This document shows positions 18,924 to 64,000 of a DNA stretch of 64,000 bases, one piece after another (position 1 is the first letter of the stretch; each line of letters begins with the position of its first letter). The stretch lies in assembly GCF_014695385.1 (NCBI RefSeq), contig NZ_JACJOD010000032.1:1-64000 (forward strand). Reading direction: 5' to 3'. The translations under genes were made by a program, and so were the position numbers. The notes under the pieces are model-generated. The model saw only the letters and a list, made by a program, of their open reading frames with translations, searched no databases and was not told the origin of the DNA. Origin of the DNA: Trichocoleus sp. FACHB-46. Its GTDB lineage: Bacteria; Cyanobacteriota; Cyanobacteriia; FACHB-46.

Positions 18924-19769
18924 TTAGCTTGCCAAAGATTGCATCATGTTGGGGGCAATCTGATCCAATCTCGTTTGTCCCATTCCCATCGCTGTTTTTC
19001 GCCCTACGCCAGAAAAGAAGGCAAAATGAGCTAATATCGTAGCGGCTTTTGCCTGTTCTGGGTCGGGAAATCGGTATGTAACCCAACCCACTGCTCCAAG
19101 TTCAACTGAGTTTTTGATTTTTACCTTTTCGGTTCTCAGCTCATAATCAGAAACCCACCCATTCCAATGAATTTTAGGAAGCTTTAGGTTTTCTGGGGCA
19201 AACGCATTCCATCGGCGATATAAGCTGCCAAATGCTGCTTCAAGTAAAGGAAAGGCTTGAATTCCCTGCCCGGTATTCAGCTTGAAGCTAACTGGAGAAA
19301 GATACTTCAATGTCAGCTCGTTCAAGATGAGCGGCGTTTTAGCAAGCAAAGTATAACTAGATGAACAAACCCATAAATCAGTGCTGGGCAACATGTTGAT
19401 GCTTTGAATGACAAAGGGGAATTCCGCCAAAGAGAATGGTGTGTCTTCCAATTTTTGGAACCCCTCTAGAAGTGGTTTCATAAGATTTCCACTCAATAGT
19501 CCAATCCGAAAGTGGAATTCATTTCCTGCCTTTGCCTCCGTTTCTTGGCGTTTACTCATTAATCCGGAGATAATAAAGGGTGACTCTTGGCTCTTGTGAA
19601 TTGCTTCAGAAACGTTTGGGTCACCCTGACGAAACCACTCCAAGACTTGGGCATGAATGGCTCGATTGCAGGCCGAGGGCAAAGGTCCACTCCTAGCAGC
19701 TCTCAAATGAATAACCAGAGTTTGTAGCGTTTCAGGCTCAACAGAGAGCAGGGGCATAATTGGCTCCAT
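18924..19769 (-). CDS. cas6: Cas6 crRNA-processing endoribonuclease (type I-D)
   Basis: This 281-residue protein has a Cas6 fold: an N-terminal ferredoxin-like start (LQTLVIHLRAARSGPLPS), AIHAQVLEWF, and the C-terminal glycine-rich loop GVGRKTAMGMGQ at about residues 257-268, which binds the repeat. Cas6 cuts the pre-crRNA within the repeat and stays on the 3' end. The gene is the last of the operon and overlaps the end of csc1 by about 30 bases (about 20 if Met5 is used), indicating coupled translation. It looks intact, unlike csc2 and cas10d upstream, so crRNA processing may persist even if the surveillance complex fails. Confidence 0.9.
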   Translation of the reverse strand: MEPIMPLLSVEPETLQTLVIHLRAARSGPLPSACNRAIHAQVLEWFRQGDPNVSEAIHKSQESPFIISGLMSKRQETEAKAGNEFHFRIGLLSGNLMKPLLEGFQKLEDTPFSLAEFPFVIQSINMLPSTDLWVCSSSYTLLAKTPLILNELTLKYLSPVSFKLNTGQGIQAFPLLEAAFGSLYRRWNAFAPENLKLPKIHWNGWVSDYELRTEKVKIKNSVELGAVGWVTYRFPDPEQAKAATILAHFAFFSGVGRKTAMGMGQTRLDQIAPNMMQSLAS

Positions 19770-20523
19770 ATGCTATTCCGCTTGGTAAGCAAATTTGGTT
19801 TGGCAATTCTTCTAGGGCTCGCCATTTTGCTGGTACTTCGTGCTCAAGCGGTCGATCAATTTTCCAGTAGTCACCGGATAGTTGGGCTTGACTTAACAGG
19901 CTCACAGGGGGCATAACAATCCGGTTGTATGACAGTAAGCGAGTTGAACTGGGCAAATCTATAGGATTCAAGGGATGCTGGCAAGTATAGTCACCTGATT
20001 CTTGGTTGATCCTCACTTCAGGAATCAATTTTGTCTCCACTCGTATCTTGGCTGCCCACTTACCCAACCTGATCCAACGAGGAATCTGAACGATTTCAGG
20101 AGCAATAATATAAGTTTTGTAGGTGCTGCCTACTGCTAGTTCTTTTGCTCGTCCGTAGCTAAGAGGATAGTTACGATCGTTCCCCTTCCCTCCTAATGGT
20201 CTGGACTTCTCATGATAAGCAGCTTGAGATACTTTAAAGGTGTTGACCTGATAAGAGTACCGTATCGGTAAAGCTGGGAAGACGTAGATACCTGATTCAT
20301 TCAAGCTGAGTAAATTTTGCTCATTATCAGCCTCTAGGTAGCCGGGGCGCTGAGCGATCGCACCTTCCAAGCGGTAAGGTCTGGGAATGTAGGTGCCTTC
20401 GAACAGGGCATAGCTAAGTGCCCAGTTATGAAGGTATTTCTCCGTCTCATAGAGGGTGCCCATTTCACGCGAGGCAAAGAAGACATTGTCGTGGAGAGTT
20501 AGATGGCATAGATAGAGAACCAT
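19738..20523 (-). CDS. csc1: Csc1 (Cas5d), type I-D Cascade subunit
   Basis: This protein of about 261 residues begins MVLYLCHLTLHDNVFFASREMG, a normal Csc1 start with the RAMP-type first strand. Other Csc1 features are YETEKYLHNWALSYAL and YIIAPE...RWIRLGKWAAKIRVE. Cas5d caps the 5' handle of the crRNA in the type I-D complex. The start at 20523 was preferred over a TTG at 20538; it lies 12 bp after the csc2 stop codon. The length is normal for the family. No damage was seen. Confidence 0.85.
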   Translation of the reverse strand: MVLYLCHLTLHDNVFFASREMGTLYETEKYLHNWALSYALFEGTYIPRPYRLEGAIAQRPGYLEADNEQNLLSLNESGIYVFPALPIRYSYQVNTFKVSQAAYHEKSRPLGGKGNDRNYPLSYGRAKELAVGSTYKTYIIAPEIVQIPRWIRLGKWAAKIRVETKLIPEVRINQESGDYTCQHPLNPIDLPSSTRLLSYNRIVMPPVSLLSQAQLSGDYWKIDRPLEHEVPAKWRALEELPNQICLPSGIAYGANYAPALC

Positions 20524-20534
20524 TCGAGTACCTC

Positions 20535-21370
20535 TCAAATAGAAGATCCTTGCCTTGCTTTTTTCTTCCGTTCAGGAAAGAGAGCCCCATAACTTTCGGA
20601 GTAGGACTGGGTCTGCTGGTAAAGGGTAGTCATAATGGTTCGCAGTTTCACCTCGTCCTGATAAATGCCAGTGACTTCTTCCAGAAGTTGTTCTAGCTCA
20701 AATCCAAAAACTGTGGTGCTGCGAACGGGCTCCTGCTTCAAACAAGTTTCTGCAACTATTGCTGCTTCCTGCCGAAGTTCCCCAATCGATACGTGAATAT
20801 CACCCTTTGTGTTCAAGGCATCATAGAGTGCTTGAGTGAAATGCAGGTTGCTGAAGATTTCGCCATCACAGAAGGCAAGACCAACAATGTGATTGGTCAT
20901 CGTCCCAGTTCGAGATTGAAACTGCGATGGGAGACTTCATATGGACTGAGTGAGAACCCGGAGTCTGAGTAAACCTTAGACCGCTCTGATCCTTTGTCGC
21001 CAATGCCAAATCCATAAAGGATACAATCTGGACATCTTTTGCATGATTTCTGACCGTTGTATTCGCAAAAGCCAGTCTCGCCCTCTACATCACTGGTTAA
21101 GCCTAGCGATCGCAACAATTGCCGTCCTACCAGCCGTTCTGGTGTCACCTGCTTGCGCTTAAACATAACTAATCGGCTGATCAATTGCCTAGATTTTTCA
21201 TCCTCAGAGTTTAAGCCTGCTTGAGTTCGGGCCGTATTGAGCACCCCATCCGTTTGAAAGACCGGAAATGATTGGCTGTGACGTACCAGGAAAACGTGAA
21301 CATACTTCCCCGATGCCAAACGGGGAAAAGCAGGATGGAATTGAGGTTTCAGATTTTCTAAGACACTCAT
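20535..21370 (-). pseudogene. csc2: csc2 (cas7d) disrupted by internal deletion and frame change
   Basis: Two frames cover the gene: 21370-20897 (157 aa, N-terminal part with CEYNGQKSCKRCPDC and YSDSGFSLSPYEVSHRSFN) and 20900-20535 (121 aa, starting MTNHIVGLAFCDGEIFSN). In the second frame the bases just before this ATG still read SRTGT, which in ordinary Csc2 precedes the NHxVxxAFCDGEIFSN motif. The roughly 60-70 residues normally found between SFN and RTGT are absent, and the frame shifts near 20915. The simplest reading is a deletion of about 190-200 bp. Csc2 is the backbone of the type I-D complex, so loss should abolish crRNA-guided targeting unless the two halves assemble. A genuinely split gene is less likely but possible, since the overlap is an ATGA. 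Confidence 0.75.
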
Positions 21371-22233
21371 AACTGTGCTCCTTCAACTTCCTGCTTTTTC
21401 GTTTTGGGTTTAGTTTCCTCCATTGCCAATAAGCGGTAAGCAAACTCGGCACCTGATTTAATCCGGCTGCGGTGTTCTTGCAGAAGGGCGCGATCGCCCT
21501 TGTATTGCCCCAGAAATAAATCGTTGACACAGGTGCTTACGAACTGGTGAACTGCCTGTATTTCGTTATTGACACGAATTTCAATCGATAAAGAGTGATC
21601 CTTGACGAGAGGACGTCTCTTGGGCTCCTGCCGTCTCAGAGCGTCATGTAATCGTTCCGATGTTTGCAATATTAGGGTTTCGATCGGTAAATCGCTGGGA
21701 GTTGACAGGATATCTTCTAAAACCTTTGATAGGGGAAGGAGAATCGCGTAGGTTGATTTCGCTACATGGACTTGATAGAACACTCGATATTCCTGAACTA
21801 ACCGTTGAGTTATGTCAAGTTGTTGTTTCATAGCCGGATTTCCTGCTGTCCAAATCTGGGCAAATTTCCAGTATCTTTGAACTATTTCATCGGAAAGGAC
21901 TGGAAAAGATGCATGGGCAAGACTAAAAATAGCTAAGACATCGTCTGTAATTGCGTGTACAGTACCAGGAAAAGCTTGCCAACGAGGGTCAGGAGGCTTC
22001 GACCGACAGTCAAGATGAACGCTGTAAGCAATCAATAAACGATTAAGCCAATCACTCAGGTGTTTGACCTGTCCCTTTCTCTCCTCTTCCAGATGAATGC
22101 GGGTTGGCAAATCTAACAGGTTCCAGAAGCTAGCGGGTCCATCCACCTGAACTGTTGTTAGAAATTCGCTATCGCTATCTCTGTTGTAGGGTGGTGCAGA
22201 ACTGGTGGTAGCGGTTACTTTAATGCCTAGCAC
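21367..22233 (-). CDS. Cas10d C-terminal part, including Cas11d small subunit region
   Basis: This 288-residue frame opens at GTG 22233. Homology extends further upstream in the same frame (DAWIEPAFLAIALPLVLG), joining the end of the cas10d frame after a one-base shift at 22287-22291. It carries the Cas10d C-terminal region (DDVLAIFSLAHASFPV, GNPAMKQQLD). In type I-D systems the small subunit Cas11d is translated from an internal start in cas10d. Met135 at 21831, preceded by AGGAAA about 9 bases away, is a good candidate and gives 154 residues. So Cas11d could be made even though the full-length fusion frame is broken. The gene overlaps csc2 by four bases. Confidence 0.7.
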   Translation of the reverse strand: MLGIKVTATTSSAPPYNRDSDSEFLTTVQVDGPASFWNLLDLPTRIHLEEERKGQVKHLSDWLNRLLIAYSVHLDCRSKPPDPRWQAFPGTVHAITDDVLAIFSLAHASFPVLSDEIVQRYWKFAQIWTAGNPAMKQQLDITQRLVQEYRVFYQVHVAKSTYAILLPLSKVLEDILSTPSDLPIETLILQTSERLHDALRRQEPKRRPLVKDHSLSIEIRVNNEIQAVHQFVSTCVNDLFLGQYKGDRALLQEHRSRIKSGAEFAYRLLAMEETKPKTKKQEVEGAQL

Positions 22234-22264
22234 CAGTGGAAGTGCGATCGCCAGAAATGCAGGT

Positions 22265-24271
22265 TCAATCCAGGCATCTGTCGTTGTTTTTCCCCTTTGT
22301 AGTGGTGTAAGTCATTGCCAGGAAAGTGAGGTTGTGCTGACTCTCCTCGTTAGAGTTGAGCTCATTTTTCAACCAGGGATAGAAGCGCAAAGCATTGGCA
22401 TCCATCCCATGCTCCTGCCAGAACCGGCGAATTTTCCATAGATTGACTCGTTCGAGTTGCTTGGCCAGGATATGAATGACTTTTGTAACCGGAGGAGCGT
22501 GAGCAAAGGTAGGAGAAAAATATAAAAAAACGGGCTGTCGCTCTTCCAGTTTGCCTGGAGAAAATGACCAGAATGCCTGCCGTAAGAGCATCTCTAATGA
22601 CCAGATTTTAGAAATGCCTCGCTTCAGTTGCCGCCCTCCTAACGGATTTTTGTTGCTATACTGCTGGGGCTTAAAGGGGACAACTGAAGCCATTTGAGCT
22701 TCTGAGACGAATTCACCAGAGCTGAGGGAGCAAATCGGTTGTCTAGCAGCTTTTGTCTTCGCAGCCATATACGTTGCCAATTCATGTTCGAAGGATGACT
22801 CTGGGCTATCCCATCCTGGTAACTCTAAATATTGAACCAAGTAGCGATCGAAGGCTTCACGAGTGGCACTGGTTAGAACTGGAAAGAGTTTTTTCTCCTC
22901 AGCCCAGATTGTTAACCGGCTAGCTATTTCTTGAAGTTTTCTAGTGACAGATCTCAAATCTAAGTGAGGGCTGTTAGCGACATAATAAGCGGCTGCATGA
23001 TACCAGCCCAAATTCACTCCTCCTGTATGAATCTGAGCTTGCTCCCAAGTGATAGCAGATTGAATGCCCAATTGTTCCAGAATCCACGCAATGAACTCTG
23101 AATTGCTTCTAAAAAACTGCTTTTGCAAGAAAATGATAAATTCTGCAATGCGATCGCTTCTCAAATCTGCACCTTGAGACAGGAATTTCCGCTCTAATGT
23201 AGTGATACTTAAATTCATGAGGCGTTTAGGTGTTGCAGGATCGATTTCATTTTTAATCGTGGCTTCAACGATACTAGGCAAACCCTGAATCAACTGGGCT
23301 GGAGAAAGGAGTTCGAGGATTTGAGGTGCTGCTTTTAATCCCTTTCCGTCTCGCTTGAATCCAATCTCTCCCACTAACATGTTGGTCACCAATTGGTCAC
23401 TAATCTGTTCCCATATAAATTGCTGGAGATCCATGCGATTGAGTAAGTTGAAACCTCGTGGTGCAAGGTAGACAACCCCTTCGGTAAAGCATAGAATTGG
23501 TTGCCAATTCAACTTCTCAGTGAAGTTCAGGACAGCATTATGGATGCTGTTAGTGAGCAGTCCAGTACAGTTACGGAGACGGTGATAGATTAGAGTGCGA
23601 TCGATCCCCAATTCCTTCAGCAGCGCTGGCAAGCGATCACCTGCCGATGTAGTAACAATATCGACAGGACTAGTGAGTTGAGCGGCGATTGTACTAAATG
23701 AGAGTAACGGGTGCAGAGTGAGCCTCAGACGCTGGTCAGGGACTCTGAAACCATTTCTCTTAGCTGAGGTATTATTGTCTGAATTTTGAAGAGTAATTTG
23801 AGTGAGATAATCAATCTCTGGCAAGTACTCACGCCACTGTGGCCAAAACATATCCAGATTGAGTACTTCTCCTAGATTAATATCTGGAGTAAGCAGTGGA
23901 GCTGTTACTCTGCTTGAATAGCAACTGTTATACCCCTGCAAGGTAAACCACACACAGAGTAAGCATTTCTCATCCTTAGATAGTGCGAGTTCTTCATTCA
24001 GAAGAGGGATTAAGCTCCAAACGATTAGCAGGCTATTCAAGATATTAATCAGTAGACTTTGGTTTAAATGTTTATCACTACTGATCAACTGTCTCGTTTG
24101 GTTTTGCTCTTGCGTTAGCGTTTTCCAGTAACTTTTTGTCCTACAAAACGTAGATGCTCTTCCAAACTCTTGTTCTACAGCAGGTAGTACTACATTGATG
24201 TAGTTAAATAGTACCGAATCAAGGCTGTGCGGTAGAGTTTCGAGCAGGAGGGTTTGGAGAAGAGTTTTCAT
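22265..24271 (-). CDS. cas10d: Cas10d (Csc3) large subunit, N-terminal 668 residues, HD motif lost
   Basis: This first gene of the Cas operon encodes most of Cas10d. The N-terminal domain shows LNEELALSKDEKCLLCVWFTLQGYN (about 91-115), where the HD-nuclease family has LHDLNK; both His and Asp are replaced (LQGYN at 111-115), so no target cleavage is expected, as in other CASTs. The frame ends ...TTKGKNNDRCLD at 22265. In a +1 frame the text would continue TTDAWIEPAFL, so an extra A in the A5 run (22287-22291) has split the gene. This could be a mutation, a sequencing error or slippage-corrected expression. It is divergent from tniQ. Confidence 0.8.
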   Translation of the reverse strand: MKTLLQTLLLETLPHSLDSVLFNYINVVLPAVEQEFGRASTFCRTKSYWKTLTQEQNQTRQLISSDKHLNQSLLINILNSLLIVWSLIPLLNEELALSKDEKCLLCVWFTLQGYNSCYSSRVTAPLLTPDINLGEVLNLDMFWPQWREYLPEIDYLTQITLQNSDNNTSAKRNGFRVPDQRLRLTLHPLLSFSTIAAQLTSPVDIVTTSAGDRLPALLKELGIDRTLIYHRLRNCTGLLTNSIHNAVLNFTEKLNWQPILCFTEGVVYLAPRGFNLLNRMDLQQFIWEQISDQLVTNMLVGEIGFKRDGKGLKAAPQILELLSPAQLIQGLPSIVEATIKNEIDPATPKRLMNLSITTLERKFLSQGADLRSDRIAEFIIFLQKQFFRSNSEFIAWILEQLGIQSAITWEQAQIHTGGVNLGWYHAAAYYVANSPHLDLRSVTRKLQEIASRLTIWAEEKKLFPVLTSATREAFDRYLVQYLELPGWDSPESSFEHELATYMAAKTKAARQPICSLSSGEFVSEAQMASVVPFKPQQYSNKNPLGGRQLKRGISKIWSLEMLLRQAFWSFSPGKLEERQPVFLYFSPTFAHAPPVTKVIHILAKQLERVNLWKIRRFWQEHGMDANALRFYPWLKNELNSNEESQHNLTFLAMTYTTTKGKNNDRCLD

Positions 24272-24383
24272 GGCAGACCAAAATAGAGTTTAAGGCTGCT
24301 AATTCTCCTAATATTAAGGTGAAAACCTGAAAAAGCCAGAAAGATAACACTTTCTCTTGAATTAAATTTTGCTAATAGTTTCA

Positions 24384-24418
24384 GAAAATTGTCTTGTCTC
24401 TGAGACAAGACAATTTTC
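24384..24418. promoter_or_regulatory. Perfect 17-bp inverted repeat between cas10d and tniQ
   Basis: Arms GAAAATTGTCTTGTCTC and GAGACAAGACAATTTTC flank a single T. It lies 113 bp before the cas10d start and 208 bp before tniQ, in the divergent promoter region. A related partial copy, TGTCTTGTCTCTATGAC, lies at 24508-24524. A dimeric repressor site controlling both operons is the likeliest role. As RNA it would be a hairpin with a one-base loop, which is unfavourable, so a DNA operator is preferred. Confidence 0.65.
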
Positions 24419-24626
24419 GATAGAATCACAATAAGGAGCAATATTTTCTTTGTTGATTTTGTGATGTTATAGATAAAAACAATTTGTGCTTCATTTTGAA
24501 TGGAATCTGTCTTGTCTCTATGACGAATTGCGAGAAGAATCATATTGGAAATCAATATTTTTTTAATTGTTTCTGTACTATTAAAGAGGTTAAATAGAAA
24601 GAGGCCTCATAGTAGCAACAAGCTAG

Positions 24627-25373
24627 ATGGTTATAAGTTTTGAGAAGTTAAACCTTCCAACTATCCCAAAGCGAAGTAGACTTTATCACTTAGATCCGCT
24701 CAAGATTGGCACCCCATATGTTGAAGGCCTAATCAGCTATATTTGCCGTCTAGCTGAAGCTCATTGTGTTTCTCCAGGTATTCTCATAAAGAAAGAGATT
24801 CTGCCCAGCTTTCGGAAAAATTACAGTATTAGTGTTGGAGGGGCTTATGCATTGCAGGAGAATGGCAATAATGTTCTGGTATCTTATTTACCCAAACTAC
24901 CCTCTCGGAAAAATTTGAATGAGTATGGGCTGCTAGCTTGGCAGTACCTTGAAGGACTTAAGCCTATAACAATGAGGGAAGATTTAGAAGCATTAGTGAT
25001 TCCTCTTGAAGCTTCCAAAATCTTGCCGAGAATAGTGGATAGTGACCTAACAAGGGATTTACGAGCTTGGTGCCCTGAATGTTTTCAGGCATGGCGTACA
25101 ATCAATCATCTCATTTACGAACCACTTCTCTGGTCAATTGCTGCTATCACTATTTGTCCTGAACATCACAAACTCTTACAGTCTCGATGTCCACACTGTA
25201 ATAAGTCACAGCGACCACTCACAGCTAGAATGCGTGTTGCTCACTGTTCTCAATGTATAGGTTGGCTTGGTGTTCGCTTAGGGCCAGCATCCGAAAAAGA
25301 ACTTGCAACTGCAACAGACCTTGAGGGGCATCTTGAGATTGCCAAGCACGTCATGGAAATACTAAGCCTTTAG
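24627..25373 (+). CDS. tniQ: TniQ, short form, links TnsC to the Cas complex
   Basis: This 248-residue TniQ-family protein has the N-terminal signature RLYHLDPLKIGTPYVEGLISYICRLAEAHC and a zinc-finger part with CPECFQAW, CPEHHKLL, CPHC and CSQC. It lacks the long C-terminal HTH arm of TnsD proteins. In type I CASTs the short TniQ binds the Cas effector and recruits TnsC to the crRNA-matched DNA. It is divergent from the cas10d operon, sharing the 355-bp promoter region, and is followed by a 91-bp MITE-like insertion before tnsAB. The start ATG gives a normal N-terminus. Confidence 0.88.
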   Translation: MVISFEKLNLPTIPKRSRLYHLDPLKIGTPYVEGLISYICRLAEAHCVSPGILIKKEILPSFRKNYSISVGGAYALQENGNNVLVSYLPKLPSRKNLNEYGLLAWQYLEGLKPITMREDLEALVIPLEASKILPRIVDSDLTRDLRAWCPECFQAWRTINHLIYEPLLWSIAAITICPEHHKLLQSRCPHCNKSQRPLTARMRVAHCSQCIGWLGVRLGPASEKELATATDLEGHLEIAKHVMEILSL

Positions 25374-25380
25374 AAATTCC

Positions 25381-25471
25381 GGCGTTGCTGAGTCAAGGTA
25401 TGAGTCAAATGCTGTAAACCCTGAAAACCTGTTCAAAACTTTTTAAAATCATACTTCTATTCAGCAACACC
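25381..25471. repeat. MITE-like 91-bp element between tniQ and tnsAB
   Basis: The ends are imperfect 23-bp inverted repeats: GGCGTTGCTGAGTCAAGGTATGA at 25381 and, reading inwards from 25471, GGTGTTGCTGAATAGAAGTATGA (18 of 23 positions match). I recall such ends from cyanobacterial IS elements. There is no coding capacity. It starts 8 bp after the tniQ stop, so it may act as a terminator or separate tniQ expression from tnsAB. Confidence 0.55.
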
Positions 25472-25539
25472 GAATTTTTTTGTAGAAATATCAAAACAAC
25501 AGGTCTCAGATTTAAAGCTTTTCAAGAAAGAGCTATTCA

Positions 25540-25565
25540 ACCTAAACAAGTGATTAGGTTTAGGT
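25540..25565. promoter_or_regulatory. Inverted repeat upstream of tnsAB
   Basis: ACCTAAAC and GTTTAGGT flank a 10-base centre, 125 bp before the tnsAB start, in a gene-free AT-rich region. The rest of 25472-25689 holds no gene and a GGAGGG Shine-Dalgarno just before the ATG. A regulator site is plausible; the evidence is symmetry and position only. Confidence 0.35.
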
Positions 25566-25689
25566 CAATTATCAATAGTAGAAGGGGAATGATTGGCGAT
25601 GTCTGCTAGGCAAAGGATATGCAGGAAATTTCAAACTTTTCTGTAGAGTACAACCTTTCAAAAAGTTCTAATTCGGAGGGATAATACTC

Positions 25690-28533
25690 ATGATGAATGA
25701 TGTTGAGTTTGAGGCTTGGTGTTGTCATCTTAGCCTCAGTGACGAAGCCATAAACGAAATACAGAAAACTCGCTCTTCCGAGCCATCCCGTTTAGTTGAT
25801 GGAGGGAAAAAGAGCGTCTCAGGTCGATTTCCTAGCCTCAAAATGGGGAGAACCATTCAGTTTGAGTCACATCAGAATGAGTTGGCGCTGATTTACAAAC
25901 TTGAATTTGATCATGATGTCCTTGAGTACTGGGACCAACCTCCTACAATCTATCTGGAATACCTCAGTAAGTCAGGAAGGCGTAATCGCCATCCTCATAC
26001 ACCGGACTTTTTCGTAATTCGGAGAAATAGTGCTGGCTGGGAGGAATGCAAAACTGAGCAGGAATTGCTCAGACTAACGGAGAAAAGCCCAAATCGTTGG
26101 ACGAGAATAGAAGTAAATAGTGCTTGGAGCTGTCCACCTGGACAAGAGTATGCACAGCAGTTTGGGCTTTATTATGCTGTTCGCTCCTCTGCTGAAATTA
26201 ACTGGATCTTCGTTGAAAATTTTATTTGGCTAGAAGACTACTTCACTCATAAAGCTCTGGAAGTTAAAAAAGTACTAGTTTGTCGTATTCAAGCCTTAGT
26301 GAGGGCTGAGCCAGGTATTACTCTGAATGAAATATATCAACATGTGGGAGAGGCTACTGCTGATGATCTAAATATTTTAATTGTCACACGTCAAGTTTTT
26401 GTAGATCTTGAGAAATACCTCATTTTTTTGCCTGAACAGGTTAAGGTTTTTGCCGACCAGGATACATATGACCACTACAAGTTAATAACATTTGTTGAAG
26501 CACCAACAGTTTTAGACTCCAGAAAACTAGATATCACTATAGGTAAGATAATCGATTGGGATGGGGTGAGTTGGACAATCATTAATACTGGCGAAACCTC
26601 CATCACGTTGAGTAGGCCAGACGGTGAATGCAGTACCCTAACCAATAAAGCCTTCGAAGCCCTAGCTCGTGATGGGAAAATTATTGGCTTGTTACAAATC
26701 TCTGAGGTTTCTTCTTCTGAAGTTGAAGAATTTTGGAGAAGAGCAAGTAAGCGGGATCAAGAAGTAGCTTACTCTCGTGTTAAAGAACTGGAGCCATTTT
26801 TAAATGAGGAAAGACCACGTAAAGAACTTAACCGGACTCAGCGACGATGGCTCTCTAAATATTTAAAGGCGGAGAAGCTTGTTGGTAACGGTATCGTTGG
26901 CTTGTTTCCAAATTACCAAAATCGAGGCTGGCGACGTGATGGCATTGAGCCTGAAGTTCAACGCCTAATGGAACAGCATGTAGAAGATCACTACGAAACT
27001 GTAAAACAAGAGTCTGTTCGCCATGCTTACAGAATGTTCAAAGTTATCTGCCACGAGAAAGGGTACAAACCGCCAAGCTATGAATCATACCGTTTAGCTA
27101 TAAATAAGCGCCCAATTCATGAACAAATCGAAAAGCGTATGGGAGCAAGAGCAGCCTACTCAGAAGAGGATTTTCATTGGTATCTATATCGTGAGGAGAC
27201 ACCAGCGCATGGTCGTCGCCCTTTTCAAATTTGCCACATGGATTGCACTTTAGTAGATGTTGAGTTACTCAGTGAAATCATGCTTTACCTGGGTCTCGAT
27301 CCAAAGGAACTCAGGGGACAGGCTGAGATGGGTCGAGCTTATGTTATTACCCTTATGGATGCTTATTCCCGTAAAGTTCTTGCCAATTACATGACATTTG
27401 ATCCACCGAGCTATCGCTCAGTCATGATGGTACTGCGAATTTGCGTTGATAAATGGAGACGGCTTCCTCAAATTATCGTAGTGGATCGAGGCTCGGAATT
27501 TGACAACGTCTATTTTGATGTTCTTCTTGCTCACTATCGAATTACTAAGAAACAGAGACCGTCAGCCAAGCCTAGGAATGGTTCAGTTATGGAATGTTTA
27601 TTTGGGATTGCCGATCAGGAGTTTTGGCACAACTTAATGGGCAATACTCAAATTATGAAATCAGTGCGGCAAGTTACTAAGAAGGTAGATCCTAAGAACA
27701 ACGCTGTTTGGACACTGGCAAGACTATACCTTTTCTTCCGTATATACTGCGATGAAATTTATGATACTTCCCCTCATCCTGCCATCAGGATGAGCCCTCG
27801 CGATACCTTTAGAATTGGTTTGGAACGTAGTGGACTCAGAGGACATACACTAATTTCCCCAGAGGAGTTTAAGTATTGGAGCATGCCAGAGCCTCGCGAT
27901 CGAGGCGGGCAAAGGCAAGTAACTGCTAAGGGTGTGAAAATCCACTACATCTGGTATTGGCATGAATCCTTCAAAACAATCCGCCGAAGATCTAGGGTTG
28001 TTAAGGTAGATGTCCGGTTTGATCCCTTTGATATTACGGTAGCTTATGCCTATGTCGATGGTGAGTGGGTTAGATGTCGTCCCAAACGCTTAAGTGAGCT
28101 TGAAATACTTTCGGGACGCTCGGAAAAAGAAATGTTGACTGCTGCTGAAGAGATTAGAAGGCTGAATAAGCTTCAGGGTAGAGATTTCATAGATGTCACA
28201 GACAAGAAACTGGCTGAGTTCTTTAAGCATGTTGAAATGGCGGAAACTGCCCTTTCCACTGCTTGGCGCGATGCAAAGAAGAAGATAGCGATTCAGCATT
28301 GGCGTGATGTTGAAAGGCAGATTATCCATGCCCTAATTGAAGAAAGTGAAATTGAACCGGAGACGAATCATCTACTGAGACTGTTGAATCTCCCAACTCC
28401 ACAAGCTGACACCACCTCAAATCATGAGTTGAATGACGGGGATTTCAGCACTGATGGATTTGATAATGAATATGAATTCGATCTCAATATTGACCTCAAC
28501 GCTAAACCCTTTGAGCCTTTGGAGGTTTGGTAA
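25690..28533 (+). CDS. tnsAB: TnsA-TnsB fusion transposase
   Basis: In this 947-residue protein, residues about 45-200 are the TnsA endonuclease, with FESHQNEL (Glu59/Glu64), TPDFFV (Asp106) and WEECK (Lys121) as the PD-(D/E)XK triad. Residues about 250-900 are TnsB, an RNase-H-fold DDE transposase with Asp518 (HMDCT), Asp599 (VDRGSEFD) and Glu635 (SVMECLFG), a DD35E spacing. Together they cut both strands, so movement should be cut-and-paste rather than co-integrate forming. A strong GGAGGG site precedes the start (an alternative ATG is one codon later). The stop TAA overlaps the tnsC ATG. All catalytic residues are present. Confidence 0.93.
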   Translation: MMNDVEFEAWCCHLSLSDEAINEIQKTRSSEPSRLVDGGKKSVSGRFPSLKMGRTIQFESHQNELALIYKLEFDHDVLEYWDQPPTIYLEYLSKSGRRNRHPHTPDFFVIRRNSAGWEECKTEQELLRLTEKSPNRWTRIEVNSAWSCPPGQEYAQQFGLYYAVRSSAEINWIFVENFIWLEDYFTHKALEVKKVLVCRIQALVRAEPGITLNEIYQHVGEATADDLNILIVTRQVFVDLEKYLIFLPEQVKVFADQDTYDHYKLITFVEAPTVLDSRKLDITIGKIIDWDGVSWTIINTGETSITLSRPDGECSTLTNKAFEALARDGKIIGLLQISEVSSSEVEEFWRRASKRDQEVAYSRVKELEPFLNEERPRKELNRTQRRWLSKYLKAEKLVGNGIVGLFPNYQNRGWRRDGIEPEVQRLMEQHVEDHYETVKQESVRHAYRMFKVICHEKGYKPPSYESYRLAINKRPIHEQIEKRMGARAAYSEEDFHWYLYREETPAHGRRPFQICHMDCTLVDVELLSEIMLYLGLDPKELRGQAEMGRAYVITLMDAYSRKVLANYMTFDPPSYRSVMMVLRICVDKWRRLPQIIVVDRGSEFDNVYFDVLLAHYRITKKQRPSAKPRNGSVMECLFGIADQEFWHNLMGNTQIMKSVRQVTKKVDPKNNAVWTLARLYLFFRIYCDEIYDTSPHPAIRMSPRDTFRIGLERSGLRGHTLISPEEFKYWSMPEPRDRGGQRQVTAKGVKIHYIWYWHESFKTIRRRSRVVKVDVRFDPFDITVAYAYVDGEWVRCRPKRLSELEILSGRSEKEMLTAAEEIRRLNKLQGRDFIDVTDKKLAEFFKHVEMAETALSTAWRDAKKKIAIQHWRDVERQIIHALIEESEIEPETNHLLRLLNLPTPQADTTSNHELNDGDFSTDGFDNEYEFDLNIDLNAKPFEPLEVW

Positions 28534-29747
28534 TGGCTTCTGAACACGATTTTTCAATTGAACTACTTGACTTATCCATTGATCAACGCTTGGAATTCTT
28601 CAAAAATCCTGGCAAAACAATAATGCATCGCAACCTGAAGAAGACGTTTGAGCACCTCTATCGGATTGTTCGTAACCCTGCTGGTGCGAGCTTAATTCTA
28701 GTTATAGGTCCATCAGGGGTTGGTAAATCTACGCTGCTAGCTTTACTGCAAAGAAAGATATTGGAGACTAGTTTAGCCCGTATGGAAGTTGATTTGAGCT
28801 GGTATCCCATTATTTGCATTGAAGCTCCAGCTGTTAATCGCGGCTTTAGATGGAGACCTTTCTACAAAGAAATTTTGTTGGCAGTAGACGAACCATGTAT
28901 CGAGAATAAAATTACTTATGATGAGGATTGCCTTCGCCGCAACAAAGATGGAAAACTAATTGTTGCTACTAGGGCTACAGAAGACTCATTGCGCCTTGCG
29001 GCTCGGAAGGTTTGCTTACACCGCAAACCCTATACTCTAGCAATAGACGAGTTTGAGCATATTGGCATCTCAGCCACTAACGAAGATATAGAAGCCCATA
29101 TGCACTGTGCCAAATCGTTCATCAATGAAAGTAAGGTACCTTGGACGGCATTTGGAACTTATGAAATGCTTGACTTTCTAGAAATAAACGATCAACTCAG
29201 CCAACGTGACAGAATCATTCATTTCCCACGTTACCTCGTTGAAGCTGATGAGGATGTAGCAGAATTCAAGCGAATTTTGGAACAACTACTGCGGCGCATG
29301 CCCCTTCGACAGACACCTCGATTGACTAGTAAGCTTTTTGAGTTGTGCTACATAGGCAGTATTGGCAAAATTGGTACACTAATCAACTGGCTAACAAATG
29401 CCTATGATCTTTGTCTCTCTGAAGAAGCAAAGACATTAAGTTTCACTCATCTTGAGGAGACAATCAAACCTGAATTTGAACTTGCAAAGATGCTTGACGA
29501 AGCAGAAAGAGGTGAGGCAAAACTAATAAAAAGCAAAGAAAAGAGAAGAGCATTTCGTGCCAGACTAGGTTTTGAGCAAGGCGCAGAGGGGTCATTGGCT
29601 CAATTCAATAACAGTACGAACTTAAAAAGCTCGGACTTGTCAGAAATGTCTGAAATTCAGCCAGAGCAGGAAAATAAATTAAAGAAACAAACGAAACCGT
29701 TCAAGCGATCGCCTAAACGCGATCCCGTTGGAGACAAGCAAGTATGA
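28533..29747 (+). CDS. tnsC: TnsC AAA+ transposition regulator
   Basis: This 404-residue AAA+ ATPase has Walker A GPSGVGKST (residues 59-67) and Walker B YTLAIDEFEH (Asp172-Glu173), followed by a sensor-like IHFPRYL segment. TnsC polymerises on DNA and passes the target signal from TniQ or TnsD to the transposase. The ATG overlaps the tnsAB stop (TAATG), with GGAGG eight bases before it inside tnsAB, so the two are translationally coupled. The C-terminal 60 residues are charged and low in complexity (many Lys, Glu, Ser). It appears intact. Confidence 0.92.
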   Translation: MASEHDFSIELLDLSIDQRLEFFKNPGKTIMHRNLKKTFEHLYRIVRNPAGASLILVIGPSGVGKSTLLALLQRKILETSLARMEVDLSWYPIICIEAPAVNRGFRWRPFYKEILLAVDEPCIENKITYDEDCLRRNKDGKLIVATRATEDSLRLAARKVCLHRKPYTLAIDEFEHIGISATNEDIEAHMHCAKSFINESKVPWTAFGTYEMLDFLEINDQLSQRDRIIHFPRYLVEADEDVAEFKRILEQLLRRMPLRQTPRLTSKLFELCYIGSIGKIGTLINWLTNAYDLCLSEEAKTLSFTHLEETIKPEFELAKMLDEAERGEAKLIKSKEKRRAFRARLGFEQGAEGSLAQFNNSTNLKSSDLSEMSEIQPEQENKLKKQTKPFKRSPKRDPVGDKQV

Positions 29748-29912
29748 GATTATTTAGCAAGCTTTTAACATATAAACTTTTCTTGGATATGAAGTCAGTT
29801 CATTTTTATATTTATACAGCAGTCCTCAATCATTTCTAAATTAAGTATGTCTTGTGAGAGGTGTGTCTAGAGAACGCATCTTCCACAAAATATCTAGGAT
29901 TGCTATATCAGC

Positions 29913-29930
29913 TTTGCCTCTAGAGGCAAA
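29913..29930. promoter_or_regulatory. Perfect 18-bp palindrome upstream of tnsD
   Basis: TTTGCCTCTAGAGGCAAA lies 67 bp before the tnsD start, in the 249-bp gap after tnsC, flanked by AGCT on each side (an outer pair that lengthens the symmetry). Its sequence differs from the cas10d/tniQ operator, suggesting tnsD is controlled separately. The operator role is inferred. Confidence 0.5.
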
Positions 29931-29996
29931 CTAGTTAGCTGAAATAATTTAGCTCTTGAATGGGATCAACATGGGTTCCGGGTAAATGTTATTTCA

Positions 29997-31376
29997 ATGA
30001 AAACGAACCAGCTTTACCATGATTTAGAGCTGCCTTCACATCTTTGCCGCAGCCGTTTGTTCTGCATAGAACCTGTAGGGATTGGAACGCAGCTAACAGA
30101 GAGCTTAATTAGTCTTACTGTTCGATTGGCAGAAGCACACTGCCTTCCTCCAGGCATGCTTATGGAAAAGGAAGTTGCACCTATTATCGCTAGGACGCAT
30201 GGTGGTAACTTACATAAAATTTATAGTCACACAGCAGCGTTAAATAGCACAGGAGTAATGGCTTTAAATTTAGCGTCTGCCTTAGAAAAGCTAAGTGGAC
30301 AAAAAAATCTCCATTTACTTACGTTGGCACCTTGGTCGGAGTTGATGCCATCAAGGAAATTATTGCGGCGGGATCGCGCTTGGTGCCCAGTTTGCTATGA
30401 AAATTGGTATACAACTAAGAATGTAATTTATGAGCCTTTACTCTGGTCTTTAGAGGTTGTCAAAGCATGTCCATCGCATCGCTGTCTTCTACTGGAAAGC
30501 TGCCCTTACTGTCATCAAAAGAACCTTCCCCTAGCATGGAATTCGCGACCAGGCTATTGCTCGAAATGCCAGGAATGGCTTGGTTCACTACCTAGCAACT
30601 TAGCTGAAAATCTCAAAAACTTCTCCGAAGATGAATCAAAAGCATTAATTTGGATAGCTGATTCAGTTGGGGATTTGCTCGCTTCTACCCCTTATCTGAC
30701 CTCACCTGTTACCAAGGATAGCTTTGCTCAAGCCTTTAGAGCACACATCAATCTTGTGTCTAACGGAAATATAGCTGAGTTTGCACGCCAACTTCAACTA
30801 CCAAAAAATACTGTCTGGCTTTGGTGTAATGGTAGAAATCTGCCACAGCTAGACACGTGGGTACACATCTGTTATCGCCTCAATTCCTCCTTAATAGACT
30901 TCCTAACTCAGAGACCAGAACAAGACATTTGTCTAACTCCGGTAAAGGTCTTAGGACCTTTACACTCTAAACCAAGAGCTGAGCCCAGAGTAATTGATAC
31001 AGATCACCTGGAGCAGCAATTAGAGATTATTCTTCTCAACCATGAGTGTCCACCACCACCGATGGAAGAAGTTGCGAGACGCCTAGAGATTCACAGAGAA
31101 ACAATCTTCAGGCTTTTTCCAGAAATGTGTCGAGCAATCTCCGCTAAGTATGATCAGTTTCAAAAAATTCGTCATCATCGAGAAATTGAACAAAGTCGCA
31201 AAGAAATCAATCAAGCTGTTCTAAAACTTTATAGTGAGGGCTTATATCCATCTGAAGGACAGGTAGCTCAACTCATGAGCAAACCTGGTTACTTACGATA
31301 CAAGCAAGTACGTGCAGCTATAAAAGAGGCAAAGTTGGAATTTAACACTCAAGGTAGAAATCTACCCAACAGTTAA
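29997..31376 (+). CDS. tnsD: TnsD (long TniQ-family attachment-site selector)
   Basis: This 459-residue protein starts with a TniQ domain (RSRLFCIEPVGIGTQLTESLI...AEAHCLPPG) similar to the short TniQ and has zinc-binding motifs CPVCYENW, CPSHRCLLL, CPYC and CSKC. Its longer C-terminus carries HTH-like segments (FARQLQLPKNTVWLWCNGRNLP; VARRLEIHRETIFRLFPEM; EGQVAQLMSKPG). Long TnsD proteins bind a fixed chromosomal site and recruit TnsC without a guide RNA. Here the element ends 13 bp from a tRNA-Ala gene, so tRNA-Ala is the likely recognised site. It looks intact and has its own upstream region. Confidence 0.88.
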   Translation: MKTNQLYHDLELPSHLCRSRLFCIEPVGIGTQLTESLISLTVRLAEAHCLPPGMLMEKEVAPIIARTHGGNLHKIYSHTAALNSTGVMALNLASALEKLSGQKNLHLLTLAPWSELMPSRKLLRRDRAWCPVCYENWYTTKNVIYEPLLWSLEVVKACPSHRCLLLESCPYCHQKNLPLAWNSRPGYCSKCQEWLGSLPSNLAENLKNFSEDESKALIWIADSVGDLLASTPYLTSPVTKDSFAQAFRAHINLVSNGNIAEFARQLQLPKNTVWLWCNGRNLPQLDTWVHICYRLNSSLIDFLTQRPEQDICLTPVKVLGPLHSKPRAEPRVIDTDHLEQQLEIILLNHECPPPPMEEVARRLEIHRETIFRLFPEMCRAISAKYDQFQKIRHHREIEQSRKEINQAVLKLYSEGLYPSEGQVAQLMSKPGYLRYKQVRAAIKEAKLEFNTQGRNLPNS

Positions 31377-31544
31377 TTTCGGTAATGTTTGTATCTTTTC
31401 GAGCAAATAGGAGAAGCTCTACCTCAATAATTTTGGAACTGTAAAGCTTTCACAAAGACCTCTAGACCCTCAGCAAGTGATCTAGAAGAGATAATAAGCT
31501 AAGCTTATAGTACAGTCAGAATTGTCGCTTGGATTTGCAGAGTC

Positions 31545-31641
31545 CAGGTAAAGCACTAAGTGTCCAAGGTCCGTTACAAGCATTAAGTGGCAATTCTGGA
31601 CAATTAATGCTTGTTGTCCCAAAATAGCTCTTTAACGGACA
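31545..31641. repeat. Right end of the Tn7-like element with TnsB-site-like repeats
   Basis: Related motifs AAAGCACTAAGTGTCC (about 31550), ACAAGCATTAAGTGGC (31576) and TAGCTCTTTAACGGACA (31625-31641) share an AGC-(C/A)(T/C)-TTAA-like core. An 11-bp inverted repeat (ACAAGCATTAA 31576-31586, TTAATGCTTGT 31604-31614) sits in the middle, and GTCCGTTACAAGC at 31570 is an inverted copy of the terminus. Read inwards, the terminus starts TGTCCGTTAAAGAGCTA. The next five bases, AAAAA, would be the target duplication. No gene fits in 31377-31654. Confidence 0.7.
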
Positions 31642-33123: not shown

Positions 33124-33212
33124 AATCGTTCATTTCTTTGGATGAGTTTAGTAATTGACGACTAAAAGCAGCCAAGAAACGGAAGTAGGGAGTGATCCCG
33201 AAGGAACGCGCC
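33124..33212 (+). ncRNA. Glutamine riboswitch (glnA / Downstream-peptide motif)
   Basis: The stretch contains ATCGTTCAT at 33125 and, after a stem region, CGGAAGTAGG and CCGAAGGAACGCGCC, ending near 33212. These are the conserved blocks of the cyanobacterial glutamine-binding RNA known as the glnA or Downstream-peptide motif; ATCGTTCAT and AACGCG(C) form the outer parts of its three-way junction. It lies about 36 bp before a DUF4278 protein gene, the usual downstream gene type. It should change that gene's expression according to the glutamine level. Confidence 0.85.
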
Positions 33213-61534: not shown

Positions 61535-62260
61535 ATGGTTTTAAAGGCGGTTCTGTTTGATTTTAATGGTGTCATCATCAACGATGAGGCAGTTCACGAG
61601 CAGCTGATTGAGCAACTGCTGATTGAGGAAAATCTACGGCTCGGCCCTGGAGAGTTTAGTCGTGTCTGCTTAGGACGCAGCGATCGCGCTTGTTTAAGTG
61701 AGCTGTTAAACAGTCGGGGCCGAGTCGTCACAGAACCGTATCTGATGGACTTAATGGTTCGCAAAGCTCGTGCCTACCAACGCCACCTAGAAACCTTAGA
61801 AAAACTGCCGCTTTATCCAGGCTTAGCCGACTTGATGTTTAACCTGCGAGCAGCGCAACTCAAACTTGCGGTTGTCAGTGGAGCCTTACAGGCTGAAATC
61901 GAGTTGGTTTTGCAGAAGAGCCAACTGGCTCCATATTTCAGCGCGATCGTCGCGGGTGATGAGATTACGGCAAGCAAACCCGAACCCGACGGTTATCTTT
62001 TAGCGGTGGAACGGCTCAATCAACAATATCCGGAGCTGGATCTGCAACCCTCTGAATGTCTCGCGATCGAGGATACTCCCGCAGGAATTCAGGCGGCGAA
62101 GCGAGCGGGAATGTCCGTCGTAGGAGTCGCTAATACTTATCCGTTTCATATGATGCAGCGGCAAGCAAACTGGGCTGTAGACTACCTATCTGATTTAGAG
62201 CTGGACCGAGTGCAAGAATTGTATGCTCAACCAAACTTGAGTCAAGCCACATCTCTCTAA
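61535..62260 (+). CDS. HAD-superfamily hydrolase, beta-phosphoglucomutase-like
   Basis: This 241-residue protein starts MVLKAVLFDFNGVIINDEAVHEQ; the start was chosen because it follows the methyltransferase stop by 8 bp, and the longer frame reads through that gene. Motif I is DFN rather than DxD, so the second Asp is replaced by Asn. The other motifs are VVSGALQAEI, KPEPDGYLLAVE and ECLAIEDTPAGIQAAKRAG. The change may alter or abolish phosphoryl transfer. Confidence 0.85.
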   Translation: MVLKAVLFDFNGVIINDEAVHEQLIEQLLIEENLRLGPGEFSRVCLGRSDRACLSELLNSRGRVVTEPYLMDLMVRKARAYQRHLETLEKLPLYPGLADLMFNLRAAQLKLAVVSGALQAEIELVLQKSQLAPYFSAIVAGDEITASKPEPDGYLLAVERLNQQYPELDLQPSECLAIEDTPAGIQAAKRAGMSVVGVANTYPFHMMQRQANWAVDYLSDLELDRVQELYAQPNLSQATSL

Positions 62261-62327
62261 CCCCGATTTCATCAGCAATCTCTCTAGAGCTTGTTTAAGT
62301 TTCTTGTTATAATAGCCGAGCGCTATT

Positions 62328-62400
62328 GGGGAATTAGCTCAGTTGGTAGAGTGCTGCGATCGCACCGCAGAGGTCAGGGGTTCGAATCCCCTATTCTCCA
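62328..62400 (+). tRNA. tRNA-Ala (anticodon CGC)
   Basis: This is a 73-nt cloverleaf. The acceptor GGGGAAT pairs with ATTCTCC and includes G3:U70, the alanine determinant. The anticodon loop is ATCGCAC closed by CTGCG/CGCAG. The T loop is TTCGAAT, with stem AGGGG/CCCCT. The discriminator is A, and CCA is not encoded. It is followed two bases later by a Tn7-like end motif. Confidence 0.95.
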
Positions 62401-62402
62401 TT

Positions 62403-62503
62403 TGTCCTTTAAAGAATTAATGTCCAATTTCACGAGTTTTAGAGATTTCAGCTTCTAGCAGGCAATTGACCCCTTCAAAATTCCTGTTTAAAGAATTAAT
62501 GTC
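62403..62503. repeat. Transposon-end-like direct repeats beside tRNA-Ala(CGC)
   Basis: The 17-bp repeat TTTAAAGAATTAATGTC occurs exactly at 62408-62424 and 62487-62503. The first copy is preceded by TGTCC, giving TGTCCTTTAAAGAATTA at 62403, which differs at one of the first 13 positions from the CAST terminus near 31641 (TGTCCGTTAAAGA) and has the same orientation to a tRNA-Ala 3' end. No transposition gene is present within the window on this side. It is likely a relic of a Tn7-like element. Confidence 0.55.
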
Positions 62504-64000
62504 AGTCGATAAAATTATATTGCATTATTTGTTTCTCGGTGGGCTGTCTGAGGACAGCCTGTAGCGTTTGTAGCAGTTCTTGAATGGTGTATGGCTTGGC
62601 AATAAAGTTCTGGATGCCGTTTGCCCCCTGCAATTTCTCGTTCGAGACAAAACCACTGACGGCGATCGCTTTAATCTGCGGATTAATTTTTTGCAGCGTT
62701 TGAATGGTGGTGGGGCCATCCATTGATGGCATCATCATATCGACTAGGGCGACAGCAATCTGGTCTTTGTGGCGAGCGCAGAGTGAAATCGCTTCAATGC
62801 CATCGTGGGCTGTTAGCACATGATAGTTATAAGCTTCCAGCGCCATTTTGGTTGTTTCTAAAATCTTTGTTTCATCATCGACCACCAGAATCCATTCGGC
62901 ATTGCCATTGGCTGGATTAGCAGGCTCTACTTGAATGGGAACAGATGCTTCTACTGCTGGCAAGAATACTTTGAACTCAGTTCCTTGACCCACCTTGCTA
63001 GACACATCTATGAATCCTCTATGACTTTTAACAATGCCCCTCACCGTAGAAAGCCCTAATCCTGTGCCTTTGCCCAGCTCTTTAGTAGTAAAAAAAGGTT
63101 CAAAAATTCTGTCTACAATATCCGGTGACATGCCAGTTCCGGTGTCTTTCACAATCAGTCCAATGTAGGAACCCACCGAGGCATCCAGATGCAGTCGGGC
63201 ATAGGGTTCGTCTACAAACAGGTTTTTGGCAGAAATAGTGAGTGTACCGCCGTGAGGCATGGCATCACGGGCGTTGACGACCAGGTTCATGAGCACTTGA
63301 TGCAGGTGCGTGGCATCACCAGACACCAGCCCCAGTCCCGGTTCCACGTCGATGACCAGCTCAATGGATTTAGGAAATGTCTTTTCAGCAATCTGCTTCA
63401 CTTCGTGGATCAGGTGTTTCACTTGCACAATCGCCTGTTTACCCTCGACCCCACGCGCAAATTGCAGCACTTGCTTCACCAAAGCCGCTCCCCGTCTGGT
63501 ATTGGTTTCAATAATTTCAAATAAATGCTGACTCTGCTGATCGGCATGAGGAAACTTGAACTGTAACAATTGGGCTGTGCTGAGAACGGGAGTCAGAATG
63601 TTGTTGAGATCATGAGCAATGCCACCCGCCAGAGTTCCTAAACTTTCCAGTCGTTGCGTTCGCAGAAATTGACTTTCGAGCTGTTTCTTTTCCGTGATGT
63701 TGGTATTGACGGTCAAGATCGATTGGGGTTCTCCCTGAGCATCATGCATTAAGGTCCAGCGGCTCGCCACAATGATTTCTTGACCTTGGCGATCGACTTG
63801 ATACAGTTCACCTTGCCAGGTGCCAGATGCTCTTAAGCTGCTTTGAGCACTTTCGAGTTGATCGAGCGAGTCTGAGGGATACAATAGCTGATTCGCGTCT
63901 TGGGCGATCGCCTCTTCCGCGCTCCAGCCGTAGACCTGCTCTGCGCCCTTGTTCCAATATTGAATTTTGTTATCTAAATCTCGGACGAGGATGGCATCCG
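62502..64000 (-). CDS. Hybrid histidine kinase with PAS and receiver domains (5' end outside window)
   Basis: The frame is open to the right edge of the window: codons from base 64000 down read DAILVRDLDNKIQYWNKG, then WSAEEAIAQDANQLLYPSDS, a PAS domain. Then come HisKA LAGGIAHDLNNILTPVLSTAQLL, HATPase (LMNLVVNARDAMPHGG, DTGTGMSPDIVDRIFEPFFTTKELGKGTGLGL) and a C-terminal REC domain (ILVVDDETKI, ALVDMMMPSMDGP, KPYTIQELL). At least 499 codons are present; the start is beyond the window. It belongs to the PAS-NtrB-like type with an attached receiver. The stop overlaps the second 17-bp repeat. Confidence 0.9.
   Translation of the reverse strand, partial: DAILVRDLDNKIQYWNKGAEQVYGWSAEEAIAQDANQLLYPSDSLDQLESAQSSLRASGTWQGELYQVDRQGQEIIVASRWTLMHDAQGEPQSILTVNTNITEKKQLESQFLRTQRLESLGTLAGGIAHDLNNILTPVLSTAQLLQFKFPHADQQSQHLFEIIETNTRRGAALVKQVLQFARGVEGKQAIVQVKHLIHEVKQIAEKTFPKSIELVIDVEPGLGLVSGDATHLHQVLMNLVVNARDAMPHGGTLTISAKNLFVDEPYARLHLDASVGSYIGLIVKDTGTGMSPDIVDRIFEPFFTTKELGKGTGLGLSTVRGIVKSHRGFIDVSSKVGQGTEFKVFLPAVEASVPIQVEPANPANGNAEWILVVDDETKILETTKMALEAYNYHVLTAHDGIEAISLCARHKDQIAVALVDMMMPSMDGPTTIQTLQKINPQIKAIAVSGFVSNEKLQGANGIQNFIAKPYTIQELLQTLQAVLRQPTEKQIMQYNFID

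What the first reader, a model, noticed from the sequence alone, without database searches (positions are those of the whole stretch)
62328..62510. Relic of a related element at a second tRNA-Ala gene
Directly after tRNA-Ala(CGC) comes TGTCCTTTAAAGAATTA, which differs at one of the first 13 positions from the CAST terminus and is in the same orientation to its tRNA. A 17-bp repeat recurs 79 bp away. Two tRNA-Ala genes in one window each beside such ends suggests TnsD recognises a feature shared by tRNA-Ala genes. The 2-bp spacing here differs from the 13 bp at the first site, so the relic may come from another CAST type (for example V-K-like, whose ends carry TTAATGTC).
Basis: partly seen in the sequence, partly recalled or inferred. 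Interest (0 to 1): 0.6.

Follow-up and report, generated by a model that had tools for sequence, protein, structure and literature searches.

The report
Fossil RNA-guided transposon beside tRNA-Ala gene
[quoted passage not shown] the finding is real, but the element is of a known kind and no longer complete here.

Summary
In detail: TGTCCTTTAAAGAATTA starts at 62403, just after tRNA-Ala(CGC), and TTTAAAGAATTAATGTC occurs at 62408-62424 and 62487-62503. It is the tRNA-proximal (left) end of a decayed type V-K (Cas12k) CRISPR-associated transposon. The same end lies 3' of tRNA-Ala at eight other sites in seven cyanobacterial genomes, one of them an intact V-K CAST (Nostoc sp. FACHB-152). At seven of the eight, a truncated CRISPR repeat plus a 17-nt spacer copied from the adjacent tRNA lies 198-412 bp inside the element. 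The GGTA PAM and the 54-bp PAM-to-end distance fit V-K rules. So a guide RNA, not TnsD, most likely chose this site. In the window's genome the guide and all transposition genes are gone from the site, and one 21-bp end unit is deleted. The contig continues past the window and holds an inverted terminal copy at C32:71488-71510, bounding a 9.1-kb segment filled with hybrid-kinase genes; whether both termini belong to one insertion is unsettled. The window's other element is a type I-D CAST at tRNA-Ala(GGC), with different inner repeats. Both CAST kinds use tRNA-Ala genes, by different mechanisms. Known kind, new decayed instance.

The parts
62327..62401 (+). tRNA-Ala(CGC), the attachment-site gene, pointing toward the element
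   Evidence: ARAGORN; Rfam RF00005 67.1 bits
62345..62348 (+). GGTA, PAM for Cas12k (NGTN) inside the tRNA gene
   Evidence: PAM rule from PMC12765450 and PMC9938897; role inferred
62349..62365 (+). 17-bp anchor protospacer GAGTGCTGCGATCGCAC; copied as a guide spacer in relatives (G115 and G244 17/17; G001, G333, G190 16/17); no guide copy in the window's genome
62398..62402 (+). CCATT, candidate 5-bp target duplication; the flank of the distal end is CCATC (C32:71511-71515)
   Evidence: 4 of 5 match, inconclusive
62403..62424 (+). Transposon left-end terminus with boxes 1 and 2 fused (a 21-bp unit present in G001 is missing)
   Evidence: Alignment; sequences
62487..62503 (+). Third end box TTTAAAGAATTAATGTC (putative TnsB site); last recognisable left-end base
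62502..64000 (-). Hybrid histidine kinase gene joined directly to the end box (797 aa on the contig, runs past the window); presumed cargo or later acquisition
   Evidence: only diverged paralogous DNA elsewhere in the three congeners

Best explanation
[quoted passage not shown] The ancestral element carried a short guide RNA (truncated repeat plus 17-nt spacer) matching tRNA-Ala(CGC); Cas12k would bind the tRNA gene at a GGTA PAM, and TniQ, TnsC and TnsB would insert the element 54 bp downstream, just after the tRNA, leaving the tRNA intact. The repeated TTTAAAGAATTAATGTC boxes are TnsB binding sites. In this genome the guide, CRISPR array, cas12k, tnsB, tnsC and tniQ have been lost from the site, the boxes are thinned to two at this end and one at the far end, and kinase genes and an IS5-like fragment now lie between the two termini (C32:62403-71510, 9,108 bp). 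Shown by sequence: the ends, the spacing, guide copies in relatives, the intact relative. Inferred: TnsB binding, guide use, and that the two termini belong to one insertion.
For: Same end architecture 3' of tRNA-Ala in G001 (both tRNA-Ala genes), G115, G333, G190, G088, G244 (= Anabaena sp. FACHB-1237) and Nostoc sp. FACHB-152. FACHB-152 is intact in genes: TnsB, TnsC, TniQ (ShTniQ E 2e-58), Cas12k (ShCas12k E 4e-138), boxes at +6, +26, +106, +139, +172, and guide GAGCGCTGCAATGGCAT identical to its own tRNA-Ala(GGC). G244 has a V-K TnsB (ShCAST TnsB E 6e-104). Guides matching the adjacent tRNA at 0-1 mismatch in 17 nt in G001 C7, G001 C23, G115, G333, G190, G244 and FACHB-152. G001 C23 also has a Cas12k ORF less than 1 kb beyond the guide. 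PAM GGTA and 54 bp from PAM to end in G000, G001 C7, G333, G190, G244 and FACHB-152, inside the published 46-82 nt (PMC9938897) and AcCAST 49-56 bp (PMC12765450). Inverted terminal copy at C32:71488-71510, 24 bp identical to the G001 left end.
Against: No guide, cas12k, tnsC or tniQ at the window site, and no Cas12k anywhere in the genome. The distal end keeps only one box and abuts an IS5-like fragment. The flank beyond the distal end (FemAB-like gene) adjoins a codA-like region in G001, not the tRNA, so the two termini may come from different events. The target duplication is 4/5 only.
Confidence: 0.95

Rival explanations
1. The relic is a second copy or close relative of the type I-D CAST at 31.6 kb, and its TnsD recognises tRNA-Ala genes generally.
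For: 12 of the first 13 terminal bases agree, and 17 of 24 against the G001 end; both lie 3' of tRNA-Ala genes in the same orientation.
Against: Inner boxes differ (I-D: GCATTAATTGTCC and similar; here TTTAAAGAATTAATGTC), spacing differs (13 vs 2 bp), the I-D TnsAB is a 947-aa fusion with another closest solved relative, while elements with the relic's ends encode V-K TnsB and Cas12k.
Confidence: 0.02
2. The 9.1-kb segment C32:62403-71510 is not one insertion: the tRNA-side end and the FemAB-side end come from two V-K insertions, or from a rearrangement that joined them. (Compatible with the main explanation of the left end.)
For: In G001 and G002 the tRNA is followed by an insert and then a ZIP transporter gene; in G000 that ZIP gene is at 42.6 kb, and the FemAB gene, which in G001 adjoins codA, follows the distal end.
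Against: Flanks CCATT and CCATC agree at 4 of 5, as expected for one insertion with a slightly mutated duplication.
Confidence: 0.5
3. Chance repeat, or a feature of the hybrid kinase gene family.
For: The kinase stop codon overlaps the second repeat copy.
Against: The 17-bp repeat is unique in the genome and conserved beside tRNA-Ala in genomes with other neighbours.
Confidence: 0.005

Closest known systems
Type V-K CAST, AcCAST-like by insertion distance; complete example here in Nostoc sp. FACHB-152
   Same: tRNA attachment gene pointing at the left end, GTN PAM, 54-bp PAM-to-end distance, end boxes at +6 and (in G001 and the others) about +26 and +106
   Different: Window copy lacks guide, CRISPR array, cas12k, tnsB, tnsC and tniQ at the site, and lacks one 21-bp end unit
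Type V-K CAST, ShCAST-like
   Same: TnsB, TniQ and Cas12k families; relics of this type lie at the same locus in G001 and G002
   Different: End boxes are GTGACAAATTGTTTGTC-like (seen in G002 at tRNA-Val), not TTTAAAGAATTAATGTC
Type I-D CAST (CyCAST, McCAST kind), the element at 18.9-31.6 kb of the window
   Same: Tn7-like, beside a tRNA gene, terminus TGTCCGTTAAAGA similar at 12 of 13
   Different: Cascade I-D, fused TnsAB, separate TnsD homing (PMC10293859); other inner boxes and spacing

Membership tests
Type V-K CAST | Left end just downstream of a tRNA gene directed toward the element | tested here: met
   rule in PMC9938897
Type V-K CAST | GTN PAM in the tRNA, 46-82 nt from PAM to left end | tested here: met
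   GGTA, 54 bp, identical to the FACHB-152 element
Type V-K CAST | Terminal TGT and repeated boxes shared with V-K elements that encode TnsB and Cas12k | tested here: met
   box 2 fused with box 1 in the window copy
Type V-K CAST | Truncated repeat plus ~17-nt anchor spacer matching the tRNA | tested here: not met
   Absent in the window copy; present at seven other sites including congener G001 at the same tRNA
Type V-K CAST | tnsB, tnsC, tniQ and cas12k within the element | tested here: not met
   None in C32:62403-71510; no Cas12k in the genome; so it is filed as a remnant, not as a working CAST
Type V-K CAST | 5-bp target-site duplication | tested here: inconclusive
   CCATT vs CCATC; flanks rearranged
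Type V-K CAST | RNA-guided transposition activity | not testable with these tools
   Needs experiment
Type I-D CAST | End boxes like those of the I-D element in this window | tested here: not met
   Only about the first 13 bases resemble each other
TnsD-guided tRNA homing | A TnsD encoded by the element whose ends these are | tested here: not met
   The FACHB-152 element has only a 170-aa V-K TniQ and a tRNA-matching guide

The most novel reading that the evidence does not exclude
The two tRNA-Ala genes are shared landing sites at which RNA-guided (V-K) and protein-guided (I-D) CASTs succeed or exclude each other: tRNA-Ala(GGC) holds a I-D CAST in this genome and a V-K CAST remnant with cas12k in congener G001, while tRNA-Ala(CGC) has received at least two V-K types in the genus, leaving fossil ends and local rearrangements. 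The shared use is shown; succession or exclusion is inferred.
Probability: 0.5. Interest if true: 0.45.

Novelty: new member of a known kind. Interest (0 to 1): 0.33.

Why it matters
It shows that V-K CAST homing sites can be read from fossils: end boxes, PAM spacing and, in relatives, a leftover guide that names its own target. In one small genus two CAST kinds with different targeting mechanisms (TnsD protein versus guide RNA) have used the same tRNA-Ala gene, which makes competition for, or succession at, attachment sites testable by comparing congeners. For annotation it warns that such short end relics can mark the borders of cargo-bearing segments (here about 9 kb) that searches for transposase genes miss.

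Tried and rejected
Own-genome search for further copies of the end: only the two left boxes and the distal copy. Inverted repeats within 62000-63200: none, because the second terminus lies outside the window. Idea that the distal 24 bp belong to the IS5-like fragment: rejected, the other genomic copy of the IS matches only up to the bases before them. Idea of a V-K CAST elsewhere in the genome that could mobilise the relic: one V-K-family TnsB (C59, ShCAST TnsB E 3e-116) next to short ORFs, but no V-K TniQ and no Cas12k. Search for an end beside the displaced ZIP gene at 42.6 kb: none found. Clean empty site in the genus: not available, all three genomes carry relics at this tRNA. G088: same ends but 71 bp from the PAM and no guide found, unexplained. 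Other pattern matches not beside tRNA-Ala (G065, G130, G151, G280, G299, G337, G347 and others) were fetched in part but not worked out.

Full report
Observation. The sequence described is present as written: tRNA-Ala(CGC) at 62327-62401, TGTCCTTTAAAGAATTA from 62403 and two identical copies of TTTAAAGAATTAATGTC 79 bp apart. The repeat is unique in the window and in the genome. The resemblance to the other CAST's terminus (12 of 13) is above chance but does not extend to the inner repeats.

The far side lies outside the window. In the full contig (G000 C32, 193,633 bp) an exact inverted copy of the terminus lies at C32:71494-71510 and continues inward as TTTAAAGAATTATTTGTC (71488-71505); 24 bases there equal the outermost bases of the left end in congener G001. 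Between the termini are a 797-aa hybrid kinase, a 1502-aa and a 510-aa kinase ORF, and the 3' part of an IS5-family transposase. No transposition gene of a Tn7-like element is present. The segment has only diverged, scattered matches elsewhere in the three congeners, so it is specific to this place in this genome. The flanks are CCATT (tRNA side) and CCATC (far side), a possible 5-bp duplication with one change.

What it is. A search of 388 genomes of the class for TTTAAAGAATTAN{1,2}TGTC found 17 with a match and one control match. Seven of them (G000, G001, G088, G115, G190, G244, G333) have the end directly 3' of tRNA-Ala(CGC). G244, which is Anabaena sp. FACHB-1237, has an end at each side and a 551-aa TnsB beside the far one; its closest solved relative is ShCAST TnsB (E 6e-104; the next best, I-F3 TnsB, E 6e-24), and a decayed TniQ-like stretch follows (my reading of the translation). 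Using that TnsB, the species collection gave Nostocales elements with TnsB, TnsC and TniQ in the V-K order and the same kind of end boxes. Nostoc sp. FACHB-152 (L097) has the full gene set: TnsB 634 aa, TnsC 306 aa, TniQ 170 aa (ShTniQ, E 2e-58), Cas12k 655 aa (ShCas12k, E 4e-138), a CRISPR array, then a truncated repeat GGTGGTTTGAAAG with the spacer GAGCGCTGCAATGGCAT, identical to bases 23-39 of the adjacent tRNA-Ala(GGC). Its TnsB-side end was not recognised, so its far border is not verified here.

The guide is the decisive feature. Scanning each site for a copy of the 17 bases that follow GGTA in its own tRNA gave one, preceded by a truncated repeat ending in TTGAAAG (ATGAAAG in G244), in G001 C7 (1 mismatch), G001 C23 (0), G115 (0), G333 (1), G190 (1), G244 (0) and FACHB-152 (0), 198-412 bp inside the element. 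PAM-to-end distance is 54 bp in G000, G001 C7, G333, G190, G244 and FACHB-152, 57 in G115, 59 in G001 C23 and 71 in G088. This is the published V-K anatomy: left end downstream of a tRNA pointing at it, truncated repeat of about 12 nt, 17-nt anchor spacer, GTN PAM, 46-82 nt spacing (PMC9938897). AcCAST inserts 49-56 bp from an NGTN PAM (PMC12765450). The att-site crRNA is truncated and most V-K att sites are tRNA genes (PMC11406308). The window copy has the PAM, protospacer, distance and ends, but no guide: everything inward of the third box has been replaced.

Decay in the window copy. Against G001 the first two boxes are fused, with loss of 21 bp between direct TTTAAAGAATTA copies (alignment). 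Homology stops at the third box (62503), where a kinase gene begins; the far terminus keeps one box and then meets the IS5-like fragment. The genome has no Cas12k and no V-K TniQ (only the two TniQ genes of the I-D element); one V-K-family TnsB sits on C59. The relic is therefore very unlikely to move now (inference).

Locus history. In G001 and G002 the order is HAD gene, tRNA-Ala(CGC), insert, ZIP transporter. The G001 insert begins with the TTTAAAGAATTA-type end and guide, and beside ZIP it has a different V-K-like end (TGTACAGGAACTAATTAAATGTCGTCGTGACTAATTAGTGTC, read on the other strand). G002 has TACAGTGACTAATTATTTGTCATCAGTGACAGATTATTATC beside ZIP, nearly the same as the end beside tRNA-Val(GAC) in that genome, at a locus with V-K TnsB and Cas12k (TGTACAGTGACAAATTGTTTGTCATCGGTGACAGATTATTGTC). 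G002 also has a tyrosine-integrase element inserted in tRNA-Ala(CGC) itself (366-aa integrase ORF by my reading, 3' tRNA duplication). So this tRNA has received at least two V-K types and an integrase element within one genus. In G000 the ZIP block lies at 42.6-46.8 kb, and a FemAB-like gene, which in G001 adjoins a codA-like gene, follows the far terminus; a rearrangement has involved this place. I cannot tell whether 62403-71510 is one insertion or two ends brought together.

The other CAST. The element at 18.9-31.6 kb is type I-D (Cas6, Csc1, Csc2, Csc3/Cas10d) with a 947-aa TnsAB fusion and two TniQ-domain proteins, beside tRNA-Ala(GGC). In G001 the same tRNA-Ala(GGC) gene carries V-K-type boxes, an 18/18 guide and a Cas12k ORF; in FACHB-152 tRNA-Ala(GGC) carries the V-K CAST. 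TnsD homing of I-D CASTs to a tRNA gene is published for CyCAST (tRNA-Leu, PMC10293859) and was not tested here.

Verdict. A real, well-supported fossil of a known kind of element. Interest is moderate, mainly because guide-directed and (by family) TnsD-directed CASTs use the same tRNA gene in close relatives. I found no paper in the held library that names tRNA-Ala as a CAST site, but preprints and most subscription papers are not held, so this is weak evidence of novelty.

Noticed in passing
window 18924-31641: Type I-D CAST beside tRNA-Ala(GGC): Csc3/Cas10d and Csc2 are each split over two ORFs, so the Cascade part may be decayed; TnsAB (947 aa) and the two TniQ-domain genes are open.
   Followed up: partly
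L181 901-4148 (G001 C23): Congener G001 carries V-K end boxes, an 18/18 guide and a 687-aa Cas12k ORF at tRNA-Ala(GGC), the gene that holds the I-D CAST in the window genome; no V-K TnsB or TniQ was found in G001.
   Followed up: yes
L088 2739-9020 (G002): Tyrosine-integrase element inserted into tRNA-Ala(CGC) with a 3' tRNA duplication, next to a ShCAST-type V-K end relic.
   Followed up: partly
L017 985-11653 (G001 C7): Between the V-K left end and the ZIP gene G001 has SulP-type transporter, NDH-1-type subunits and PxcA-like genes, possibly inorganic-carbon uptake genes carried as cargo (names from my reading of the translations).
   Followed up: no
L182 6871-10147 (G000 C59): A V-K-family TnsB (619 aa) followed by short ORFs of 155 and 274 aa, with no TniQ or Cas12k in the genome: another V-K remnant in the window's genome.
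   Followed up: partly
L049 19560-19755 (G088): Same end boxes but 71 bp from the PAM, with a variant tRNA-Ala(CGC) and no guide found within 2.5 kb.
   Followed up: no
window 33125-33212: Glutamine riboswitch (glnA leader type, RF01739, 52.6 bits).
   Followed up: no
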